A stretch of DNA of 64,000 nucleotides from Zhongshania aliphaticivorans. GTDB lineage: Bacteria > Pseudomonadota > Gammaproteobacteria > Pseudomonadales > Spongiibacteraceae. Every line of letters begins with the position of its first letter. Position 1 is the stretch's first letter. The notes under the pieces are model-generated. The model saw nothing but the letters and a program-made list of their open reading frames with translations. It was not told the DNA's origin and ran no database searches. The translations under genes were made by a program, and so were the position numbers. Positions 16,879 through 41,444 of this stretch are shown piece by piece. The DNA is taken from positions 141,441-205,440 of the forward strand of contig NZ_CACSIJ010000016.1 of NCBI RefSeq assembly GCF_902705855.1, in the 5' to 3' direction.

Positions 16879-17469
16879 TTGAGGAAAGTAGATCACGACA
16901 GCCGCCGTGAAGAAGTGGCCGCCGCAGCCGCCCGCTTGATCGCGAACAAAGGTTTAGAAGCACTTACTACCCGCGCACTAGCCAAGGAGCTTGGCTGCTC
17001 CATAGGCGTACTGTCTCACTACTTCAGCAGCAAAGAAGAAATCGTCATCGCCGCATTCCGCTGGGCAGACCAACGCATAGACCTGCGCATGCAAGAAGCC
17101 GTTGCCGACGAAAGCCCCAACATCCAATCGTTTTTCCCCGTCATTAAGGCTGGCCTACCCCTAGACGTAGAATCGGACCTTGAATGGCGAGTGCGCCTCA
17201 ACCTACACACCTTTGCCCTCACCCACGACGCCAGCCTCCTCGCAGAGCGAGAAAAAAATCAACAATTCAGAGACTTAATGACCATCATGATTGCAGGGAT
17301 GCAAGCCAAAGGGCACGTAATCAATGAACTAAGCGCAGAAGACATCACCAGCCTCGCCTTCGATCTAGTCAACGGCATGGCCAAAAACCTACTCATGTGC
17401 CCCTTCGAAGAACGCGAAGCAAAAGCCGAATACCTATTCCGACTAATCGGATATTTGGGGTCAGTGTAA
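16879..17469 (+). CDS. TetR-family transcriptional regulator
   Basis: The 196-residue protein has an N-terminal helix-turn-helix (about 28-60), with LTTRALAKELGCSIGVLSHYF and then SSKEEIVIAAF, and a C-terminal ligand-binding domain. It starts at a TTG preceded by AAGG at 8 nt. The divergent position next to the P450 gene suggests local repression. The final codons LGSV and the TAA stop are encoded by the REP-like sequence TTGGGGTCAGTGTAA, so the original C-terminus has been replaced or extended by that repeat. Confidence 0.88.
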   Translation: MRKVDHDSRREEVAAAAARLIANKGLEALTTRALAKELGCSIGVLSHYFSSKEEIVIAAFRWADQRIDLRMQEAVADESPNIQSFFPVIKAGLPLDVESDLEWRVRLNLHTFALTHDASLLAEREKNQQFRDLMTIMIAGMQAKGHVINELSAEDITSLAFDLVNGMAKNLLMCPFEEREAKAEYLFRLIGYLGSV

Positions 17470-17770
17470 AAACTCTAGTTTGAGTTGACACCAAGAAGCC
17501 AGACAGCATGTTCTGGTTGAATGAACCGGACACGGCTTGGAATAACAAAAGAAGCAAGAATCGCAGCCTATCGAGCCCTCTTCGCAACCCAATTAGACCC
17601 CAGCACACAAAAAGCAATAAGATCAGCCCCCAACAAAGGCATGGCCTTGGGAAATGACAAATTCAAACGAGAAATCGAAGCCTTAACAGGCCGGCGGGTA
17701 ACACCAGGTAAACGAGGACCAAAGCTTAGGAATAACAAAGAATAGGGCGTTTTTACACTGACCCCAAATA
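17454..17770 (+). mobile_element. Relic of a REP-associated (Y1) transposase unit bounded by inverted repeats
   Basis: TTTGGGGTCAGTGTAAAAAC at 17454 reappears inverted at 17749-17768 (GTTTTTACACTGACCCCAAA). A third copy, in the same orientation as the second, lies at 18013-18032. Such GGGGTCAG-TAAAA ends are typical flanks of REP-associated tyrosine transposase units. The enclosed 280 bp carry only the 3' part of a transposase gene. Confidence 0.75.
17521..17745 (+). pseudogene. 3' fragment of a REP-associated Y1 transposase gene
   Basis: The 74-codon frame reads AAYRALFATQLDP, then ALGNDKFKREIEALTGRRVTPGKRG, which is the C-terminal region of Y1_Tnp/RAYT proteins. The catalytic HUH and tyrosine regions are missing, so it cannot be an active transposase. 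Upstream of it only about 45 bp separate the fragment from the inverted-repeat end, so the internal deletion removed most of the gene. Confidence 0.8.
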
Positions 17771-18012
17771 AACTAAAGTAGCAGGAAGGCAGCCGCCTTC
17801 TTGGCAATGCCCTACCATCCCTTGCAAGTTCTCGTCCTGAGAATGCCTTCCATGCTATGAGCTCGTCCTGAGCCTACGGAAACTATAGATGCATTATTCA
17901 ATTTTGAAAAGCATAAATTTGGCATTTAAGGCCAGAACAATAAACATTTTCGGCCAAGGCAAGAACCCTAGCCTCGATTTAAGTAAAACCCCTCAACTGA
18001 AACACATATGGC

Positions 18013-18032
18013 GTTTTTACACTGACCCCAAA
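18013..18032. repeat. Third copy of the GGGGTCAGTGTAAAAAC repeat at the galE 3' end
   Basis: GTTTTTACACTGACCCCAAA is identical to the copy at 17749-17768 and inverted relative to that at 17454. Its minus strand supplies the last four sense codons (LGSV) and the stop of galE. Confidence 0.85.
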
Positions 18033-19042
18033 TTGTAACCGTCAGGATTGCCACGCTGCCAACGCCATGTATCAGCCATCATCTTCTCTAAACTGCTGCC
18101 AGCCTCCCAAGCAAGTTCACGCTTTGCTTTTTCGGCATTCGCCCAAAATGCGGGTAAATCGCCTTGGCGGCGCGGCGCAATTTTGTAGGGCACAGGTTTA
18201 CCCGTCACCGCCTCAAAGGCCTTTACCATCTCTAGCACCGACACGCCTTTCCCTGCACCCAAATTAAACGCGTGTAAGCCGGGTTTATCCAAGGCCATTA
18301 ATGAACGACAGTGCCCAGCCGCTAAATCCACAACATGCAAATAATCGCGTATGCAAGTTCCGTCTGGGGTGTCGTAATCGCCGCCAAATACCGACAGTTC
18401 CTCTAACTTACCCACCGCAACACGGCTAATAAACGGCATTAAATTATTCGGAATACCCTGCGGATCTTCCCCTATCAAACCAGACTCATGCGCACCAATC
18501 GGATTAAAATAACGCAAGGCCGCCACCGCCCACCTAGTGTCAGATGCGCATAAATCTGCCAGCATACGCTCCGTCATCGCCTTAGACGCACCATACGGAC
18601 TAGAAGGCTGCCCCAAGGGCATAGACTCCTCATACGGAACAGGCGCACCAGGCCCATACACCGTAGCAGAAGAACTAAACACCAGCTTAAACACCCCAGC
18701 GTTTGCCATCGCCTGACACAAGACCATCGTGCCACCCACATTATTTTCGTAATAGCGCAAGGGCTGTTCAACACTCTCGCCCACCGCCTTCAAACCAGCA
18801 AAATGAATAACTGCATCAACCTTGTGAGATGAAAACACCTCTGCCAGCGCATCCGCATTGCGCACATCAGCCTCAATAAACGCTGGCGCAACACCCGTAA
18901 TTTTTTCAATTCGTTTTAAAACAACAGAACTGCTATTCACTAAGTTATCGACAATAACCACATCATGGCCAGCTGTTTGAAGCTCAACAACCGTGTGGCT
19001 ACCAATGTAACCCGCACCGCCTGTGACAAGAATTGTAGCCAT
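18017..19042 (-). CDS. galE: UDP-glucose 4-epimerase GalE
   Basis: It interconverts UDP-glucose and UDP-galactose and so can feed the exopolysaccharide locus downstream. The 341-residue sequence shows the NAD motif VTGGAGYIGSHT, SSSATVYG, the YGASK catalytic tyrosine-lysine pair (YxxxK) and ALRYFNPIGAHESGLIGEDP. The normal family ending WRWQ-NPxGY is complete, but then NLGSV and the TAA stop come from a REP-like copy of TTGGGGTCAGTGTAA, as in the converging tetR gene. Confidence 0.95.
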   Translation of the reverse strand: MATILVTGGAGYIGSHTVVELQTAGHDVVIVDNLVNSSSVVLKRIEKITGVAPAFIEADVRNADALAEVFSSHKVDAVIHFAGLKAVGESVEQPLRYYENNVGGTMVLCQAMANAGVFKLVFSSSATVYGPGAPVPYEESMPLGQPSSPYGASKAMTERMLADLCASDTRWAVAALRYFNPIGAHESGLIGEDPQGIPNNLMPFISRVAVGKLEELSVFGGDYDTPDGTCIRDYLHVVDLAAGHCRSLMALDKPGLHAFNLGAGKGVSVLEMVKAFEAVTGKPVPYKIAPRRQGDLPAFWANAEKAKRELAWEAGSSLEKMMADTWRWQRGNPDGYNLGSV

Positions 19043-19109
19043 ATCGATTTAACCCAAACAAAAAACACCCATTCTAACAGCCTTGCCAAAGTATTTGGGG
19101 AAGTGAACC

Positions 19110-19372
19110 TGTAGGAGGCCGCGCCCGAGGCCGATTGAATTACGCTCCAATCCAACCCAAAACCATCGCGGTCGGCGCCCGCTCCTACCAAACCGAGTGA
19201 ACTTGTAGGAGGCCGCGCCCGAGGCCGATTGAATTACGCTCCAATCCAACCCAAAACCATCGCGGTCGGCGCCCGCTCCTACCAAACCGAGTGAACCTGT
19301 AGGAGGCCGCTCTGAGGCCGATGAATTACGCTCCAATCCACCCCAAACCCATCGCGGTCGGCGCCCCCTACA
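19110..19372. repeat. REP-like palindrome cluster I (three copies)
   Basis: The copies lie at 19110-19188, 19204-19282 and 19298-19372. Each begins TGTAGGAGGCCGC, passes through GAGGCCGAT and a central AATTACGCTCCAATCC segment, and ends ATCGCGGTCGGCGCCCGCTCCTAC, so the outer arms pair. Copies 1 and 2 with their linker form an almost perfect 94-bp tandem duplication. The arm resembles the known Pseudomonas REP core (GTAGGAGCGGGC). The cluster lies upstream of galE and of the tumE gene. Confidence 0.93.
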
Positions 19373-40991: not shown

Positions 40992-41444
40992 ATGAATAAC
41001 CCGCCAAAGGGTGGTGATCTTCGTTTGGGGCGCCGCTCTTTATCTGGGCAAGCTTATCTAATTACCACCTGTACTGCGCATCGCCAGCCTTATTTCAATA
41101 ATTTTTGGATAGGCCGCGGTGTCGTTACGGCTTTACGGGAGGTAGAGGCCGCCACGACCCTCGCGTTTGTGGTGATGCCAGATCACTTGCATTGGTTAAT
41201 GGTATTGCATGGAAATTCATCGCTTTCGCGCACAGTTCAGTTCCTGAAAACACGGTCTGCCCATAATGTGAATCGTCTTAATGTTTGCGATGGGAGAGTT
41301 TGGCAGCGTGGGTTTCATGATCGCGCGCTGAGACAAGATGACGATGTTGTTGCTGCGGCGCGGTATATCGTTGCAAATCCATTGCGAGCTGGGCTTGTTG
41401 AGAATGTTGGAGAGTATCCGCTTTGGGATGCCATTTATTTTTAA
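40992..41444 (+). CDS. rayt: REP-associated tyrosine transposase (RAYT)
   Basis: The 150-residue Y1-type HUH nuclease shows YLITTCTAHRQPYF at the start, the histidine motif MPDHLHWLMVLHG, VWQRGFHDRALRQDDDVVAAARYIVANPLRAGLV (catalytic tyrosine in RYI) and a short C-terminus. It appears complete for the short RAYT subtype. REP-like palindromes of the same subtype lie on both sides, the classical REPtron arrangement, so it is the likely agent that spreads or maintains them. The start could also be the ATG two codons upstream. Confidence 0.9.
   Translation: MNNPPKGGDLRLGRRSLSGQAYLITTCTAHRQPYFNNFWIGRGVVTALREVEAATTLAFVVMPDHLHWLMVLHGNSSLSRTVQFLKTRSAHNVNRLNVCDGRVWQRGFHDRALRQDDDVVAAARYIVANPLRAGLVENVGEYPLWDAIYF

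What the first reader, a model, noticed from the sequence alone, without database searches (positions are those of the whole stretch)
17454..18034. Two converging genes end in the same REP-encoded residues LGSV-stop
The TetR gene and galE, on opposite strands, both finish TTG GGG TCA GTG TAA, encoded by inverted copies of one mobile end. GalE has its family ending (WRWQ, NPDGY) before these residues, so the repeat inserted at the stop codon and supplied a new one with four or five extra residues. The palindromic end carries an in-frame stop that makes insertion at gene ends harmless.
Basis: partly seen in the sequence, partly recalled or inferred. Interest (0 to 1): 0.7.

Follow-up and report, generated by a model that had tools for sequence, protein, structure and literature searches.

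The report
Mobile DNA end supplies stop codons
Copies of one small mobile DNA element lie at the ends of two neighbouring bacterial genes and give both the same last few amino acids and stop codon, an effect already known for related repeats and here traced in other genes and other bacteria.

Summary
In detail: a TetR gene (+) and galE (-) both end TTG GGG TCA GTG TAA inside inverted 21-bp copies of one sequence. That sequence is the terminal inverted repeat of a RAYT-like (IS200-type) transposon: the window holds a C-terminal transposase relic between two ends, and complete 802-829-bp elements with Y1_Tnp genes exist elsewhere. It fits published TIRYT/TIRtron elements, not GTAG REPs. Relatives without the repeat end differently. 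Of 252 ends from many genomes, 14 end a long ORF at LGS[V/E]-stop and 8 are read on in other frames. Among family-supported genes cut short by an end, 11 of 12 use this frame (a filter chosen after seeing the rows). I read this as survivorship: insertions near gene ends persist when translation stops at once. Stop codons supplied by REP termini are already published, so this is a variant of a known kind.

The parts
16879..17469 (+). TetR-family regulator gene whose last 4 codons and stop lie in the element end
   Evidence: ORF; best NCBIfam match BetI, E 4.3e-12, below that model's curated cut-off; relatives' C-termini
17452..17473 (+). Left terminal inverted repeat; codes LGSV-stop at 17455-17469
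   Evidence: BLAST homology to five relatives without the repeat stops at 17432-17447, homology to the sister genome G017 runs to 17494
17521..17742 (+). C-terminal relic of a RAYT-like Y1 (IS200-type) transposase, catalytic part missing
   Evidence: 56-58% identity over 63-64 aa to the C-termini of transposases inside four 802/829-bp elements; three of those transposases match Pfam Y1_Tnp; the relic itself has no Pfam or NCBIfam match
17749..17770 (-). Right terminal inverted repeat of the 315-bp relic unit 17454-17768
17771..18012 (.). Spacer shared with the sister genome downstream of galE; seems to contain a degenerate opposite end (approximately 17945-17973) of the galE-side element
   Evidence: alignment, in which G017 has what I read as a diverged element of about 103 bp; the boundary in the window is my reading of that alignment
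18013..18033 (-). Terminal inverted repeat at the 3' end of galE; codes LGSV-stop at 18031-18017
18017..19042 (-). galE, UDP-glucose 4-epimerase, ending NPDGYNLGSV*
   Evidence: (PRK10675, E 2.2e-149; TIGR01179, E 9.7e-135, both over cut-off)

Best explanation
The shared LGSV-stop is coded by the terminal inverted repeat (TIR) of a RAYT-like 'TIRYT' transposon and its short non-autonomous derivatives. Copies inserted in or next to the last codons of each gene, removed the original ending and supplied mostly NAT-TTG-GGG-TCA-G(T/A)G-TAA, i.e. [Y/H/N/D]LGS[V/E]-stop. Shown: the TIR, the transposase relic, complete elements elsewhere, different endings in repeat-free relatives of three genes, and recurrence of this ending in unrelated genes and genera. 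Inferred: insertions at gene 3' ends are kept mainly when the reading frame meets this early stop, because the other frames run on into the element, so the pattern is survivorship and not targeting of stop codons. The insertion at TetR appears older than the split from the sister species (supported by shared sequence inside the element); the one at galE probably is too.
For: Inverted TIR pairs of 104-118 bp elsewhere in the own genome; the two short elements folded, one from each Zhongshania genome, form long hairpins (z -8.6 and -9.4). Four complete 802-829-bp elements with the same ends carry a RAYT-like gene; three of three proteins tested match Y1_Tnp. The TIR contains GGGGTCAG, fitting GGGGWSAS of TIRYT TIRs. 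Relatives without the repeat end differently: GalE, TetR, and a third own gene (PepSY_TM)...NQRRNAEKNLGSV* against ...NQRRNQQRP*...NQRRNKNKLST* and ...WWSRRLG*. Of 252 ends, 14 long ORFs stop at LGS[V/E] and 8 run on in other frames; of stops between -3 and +60, 14 are at +13, none at -3 to +12, 3 at +14 to +60. Family matches support 11 of the 13 independent LGS genes and one gene truncated in another frame (L091): 11 of 12, p about 5e-5 at 1/3. A peroxiredoxin ends ...AVSSLGSE where the solved relative 5enu ends ...AVQAL.
Against: Insertion was not seen happening. The 11-of-12 filter was chosen after seeing the rows; unfiltered it is 13 of 21, p 0.007, and with the two family-supported ORFs that read on (L092, L224) counted, 11 of 14, p 0.0007. 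Genes were called by a longest-ORF rule, which misses at least one further case (L088, MGSV, seen only). Copies within a genome are not independent. L108 is just under its Pfam cut-off and TetR under the NCBIfam cut-offs. Only GalE, TetR, the PepSY gene and, through PDB chains, one peroxiredoxin were compared with relatives; other PDB relatives of the latter (e.g. 5iph) have four more residues. In the sister genome galE enters the diverged element in another frame and stops at TAG, so the history at galE is not one clean insertion.
Confidence: 0.85

Rival explanations
1. The transposase targets a sequence around stop codons, so insertions land in a fixed register with gene ends.
For: 73 of 252 ends have a long ORF stopping 3-60 bp before the end, and A-N-A precedes most ends of genome G271 (A at -3 in 60 of 64, A at -1 in 63 of 64).
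Against: Those stops are spread over -4 to -57 with no single register. A 483-codon ORF can start 15 nt from an end (L002), one element reads in frame through dnaG (L224), and 33 of 252 ends have no adjacent long ORF.
Confidence: 0.08
2. The repeat is kept at convergent gene ends because it acts as a transcription terminator or mRNA 3'-end hairpin; the shared stop is a by-product.
For: The two short elements tested fold strongly; REPs at gene 3' ends are proposed to act as RNA control sequences (PMC3733652, section read).
Against: None of the 4 terminator-like sites found in 17300-18200 lies on a TIR, the TetR-side end does not fold locally better than shuffles (z -0.8), and the two arms here are 275 nt apart. 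This does not exclude a role for the short elements elsewhere.
Confidence: 0.1
3. The match between the two gene ends is a chance or composition effect.
For: Single chance hits do occur: the 19-mer is expected about twice in a 257-Gb collection (my arithmetic), and I take L092, a GNAT gene that reads through the motif within its domain, as one.
Against: Three exact copies in 580 bp against 0.03 expected in the 64-kb window, and 17 against 0 control in the genome.
Confidence: 0.005

Closest known systems
TIRYT / TIRtron elements (Di Nocera et al. 2013, PMC3733652; sections 15 and 16 read whole, passages of others)
   Same: RAYT-like IS200-type transposase between terminal inverted repeats, some with GGGGWSAS; TIRs also found as dispersed dimers
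   Different: The copy in this window is a relic without the catalytic domain. The GGGGTCAG[T/A]GTAAAAA sequence is not spelled out in the text I read; the paper's TIR sequences are in a figure and additional files that I could not see, so it may be listed there
[quoted passage not shown]
   Same: A repeat terminus supplies the stop codon of a neighbouring gene
   Different: There the tag itself is the stop; here a TIR adds four to five coded residues and then TAA, in one frame only
Bacterial MITEs fused in frame to genes, e.g. RPE, ERIC, Correia (PMC2229807 and PMC10969869, passages seen)
   Same: Short repeat units that alter coding sequences
   Different: In the passages seen these add open reading frames to genes; here mainly a tetra- or pentapeptide and a stop

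Membership tests
TIRYT/TIRtron (RAYT-like element with TIRs) | Y1 HUH transposase gene between the TIRs | tested here: inconclusive
   Met in complete elements with the same ends in other genomes; in the window only a C-terminal relic without the domain. The own genome's two Y1_Tnp genes lie near none of the 17 ends
TIRYT/TIRtron (RAYT-like element with TIRs) | TIR with the GGGGWSAS motif (given for some TIRs in PMC3733652, for the majority in PMC6006769) | tested here: met
   GGGGTCAG in all three ends against the motif
TIRYT/TIRtron (RAYT-like element with TIRs) | TIRs dispersed as dimers | tested here: met
   5 short inverted pairs in the own genome and 7 in G017, 104-118 bp long (its eighth 'G017' row, L051, is G003)
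TIRYT/TIRtron (RAYT-like element with TIRs) | Subclass 2.1 C-terminal HTH domain | not tested
   Described in PMC6006769 (passages); no domain comparison was run
GTAG REP | GTAG tag at the end of a short palindrome | tested here: not met
   The ends read TTTGGGGTCAGTGTAAAAAC, without GTAG
MITE | Short non-coding unit with TIRs and a target-site duplication | tested here: inconclusive
   Size and TIRs met by the short copies; left and right flanks are often ANA/TNT, so a duplication cannot be separated from the TIR

The most novel reading that the evidence does not exclude
The early stop in one frame of the TIR is itself a selected property of the mobile element (a soft-landing end), and the uniform [Y/H/N/D]LGS[V/E] tail that it puts on unrelated host proteins affects their stability.
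Probability: 0.08. Interest if true: 0.6.

Novelty: new variant of a known kind. Interest (0 to 1): 0.33.

Why it matters
With repeat-free relatives as controls for three genes, it shows one transposon end rewriting the C-termini of unrelated genes, in at least Zhongshania, Seongchinamella, Candidatus Thiodiazotropha and a Chromatiales genome, mostly in the frame with an immediate stop. It gives a readable signature ([YHND]LGS[VE]-stop) for finding such events, and warns that shared C-terminal peptides can come from mobile DNA and not from homology.

Tried and rejected
Chance: rejected by counts. GTAG REP: rejected, no tag. Intrinsic terminator on the TIRs in the window: none of 4 sites coincides. 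Literature search for the TIR letters: 22 papers, 20 listed, all judged by title as host-gene or other unrelated work, none of the 20 with the GTCAGTG form. Searches for stop-codon supply by repeats (long lists, only the best 2-20 shown) and for RAYT/TIRYT: of the four papers opened (PMC3733652, PMC2229807, PMC10969869, PMC6006769), only PMC3733652 states it. PMC5896051 (Coxiella MITEs and protein evolution) was listed and not opened.

Other-frame rows of the 252-end set (8): L091 is a truncated Mutator-family transposase; L092 is a GNAT gene that I take as a chance match; L224 is DnaG read through a whole element; L102, L168, L175, L200 and L217 have no Pfam match. The last five, L092, L224 and the two LGS ORFs without a family match (L226, L239) are left out of 11 of 12; L001/L058 (orthologues) count once. 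Three of the 111 'stop before' rows are genes already ended by another end (L005, L172, L226). Dropped before the 252: ends with less than 200 bp of flank, repeated flanks, and loci L018-L049 and L118-L142; L248-L252 came later.

Full report
What is there. In the window, a TetR-family gene (16879-17469, +) and galE (18017-19042, -) converge and both end TTG GGG TCA GTG TAA. The tails lie in perfectly complementary arms, with a third copy at 17749-17770. The 19-mer is found 3 times in the window against 0.03 expected, and at 17 places in the own genome at up to 2 mismatches against 0 for the reversed control.

What the element is. In the own genome 10 of the 17 places form five inverted pairs 104-118 bp long, and the closest relative in the set, G017, has seven such pairs. 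Two of these short elements, one from each genome, were folded and form long hairpins. In the window the outer pair (17454-17768) encloses a 74-aa fragment. It has no Pfam or NCBIfam match, but is 56-58% identical over 63-64 residues to the C-termini of proteins inside four 802-829-bp units with the same ends, in three Candidatus Thiodiazotropha contigs and one Marinagarivorans contig. Three of those proteins were tested and all three match Y1_Tnp. The own genome has two Y1_Tnp genes; neither lies near any of the 17 places, so I found no intact partner element in this genome. The published TIRYT/TIRtron elements have this layout, and some of their TIRs share GGGGWSAS; a later study says the majority and places most TIRYTs in subclass 2.1 (passages). 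The TIR here, GGGGTCAG, fits. The TIR sequences of the first paper are in a figure that is not held, so I could not check whether this very family is listed.

Relatives without the repeat. GalE: 56 of 57 genomes searched have a match; of the 30 loci read, only the own one ends LGSV, and the 29 others have 0-12 residues after GY (GF in three), 0-4 in 26 of them, against 5 here. TetR: of 15 loci, own LGSV, G017 LGAV on a degenerate copy of the same end, 13 others neither. BLAST homology of five repeat-free relatives to the window stops at 17432-17447, while G017 continues to 17494, so that insertion appears to predate the split. A third own gene (PepSY_TM) ends NAEKNLGSV in own and G017, and differently in the three other genus genomes with a homologue at E up to 1e-40. 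Ends at up to one mismatch occur in 3 of 18 genus genomes, the third (G003) with GTCAGAG. At galE, G017 carries what I read as a diverged element of about 103 bp, in which the gene enters in another frame and stops at TAG; I infer that this insertion is also shared and was later remodelled.

How general. Exact matches to the pattern with T or A at one position occur in 13 of 390 genomes of the order and 16 of 369 of the class, both sets including the own genome. One genome, inferred to be Seongchinamella unica, has 71 ends at up to one mismatch. From the loci held, 252 distinct ends (up to 2 mismatches) with at least 200 bp of flank were classified by the longest adjacent ORF: 111 with an ORF stopping before the end, 86 on the other strand, 33 with none, 14 stopping at LGS[V/E], 8 running on in other frames. 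Residues before LGS are N, Y, D, H or, once, S. Family matches support 11 of the 13 independent LGS genes: GalE and TetR (TetR below the models' cut-offs), PepSY_TM, PadR, PQQ_2, Nuc_deoxyrib_tr (28.5 against a cut-off of 28.8), DUF1415, ChaC, YHS and two AhpC-TSA proteins. One family-supported gene is truncated in another frame (L091). With 1/3 per frame, 11 of 12 has p about 5e-5 and the unfiltered 13 of 21 about 0.007; counting the two family-supported ORFs that read on, 11 of 14 has p about 0.0007. These are rough: the filter came after seeing the rows, copies are not independent and genes were not annotated.

Mechanism. Most likely the element inserts without regard to stop codons. Stops before the ends are spread over -4 to -57, one element reads in frame through dnaG, and 33 ends have no adjacent long ORF. 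Among insertions into the last codons, those entering the TIR in the frame TTG GGG TCA stop after four residues; the other two frames run on, and such genes are seldom seen. That this is survivorship is inferred and not shown.

Known or new. Stop codons supplied by GTAG REP termini are in print, as are TIRYT TIRs. In my searches I saw no earlier report of this stop-supplying behaviour for TIRs, but the library holds only open-licence papers, the lists were capped, and four papers were opened. I rate it a new variant of a known kind.

Noticed in passing
L224, about 1504-1592 (genome G271, inferred Seongchinamella unica): An 89-bp element with both ends is read in frame within dnaG, between the Pfam DnaB_bind and DnaG_DnaB_bind regions, coding about 30 residues. 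No element-free DnaG was compared.
   Followed up: partly
window 17454-18033 against relatives: In five other genus genomes fetched (G002, G005, G006, G008, G011) TetR and galE are convergent and 2.4 to 10 kb apart; here the gap is 0.5 kb and full of element ends, and in G017 the two genes lie on different contigs. This suggests deletion or rearrangement near the repeats; in several other genus genomes the two genes are not close.
   Followed up: no
window 41052-41369: One of the own genome's two Y1_Tnp matches lies in this window (33.3 bits; position); no end of this family at up to 2 mismatches lies beside it.
   Followed up: no
window 19102-19366: Tandem array of a 94-bp unit, 2.8 copies, just upstream of galE.
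   Followed up: no
L012 1961-2180 and L054 861-1140: An element present in G017 and absent from the own genome at the same gene end gives an approximate empty site, but the flanks are too diverged to read a target duplication.
   Followed up: partly
64 ends of genome G271: A-N-A precedes the TIR at nearly every end with a variable middle base (T 33, A 11, G 11, C 9), which may mark the true element boundary or a target preference.
   Followed up: partly
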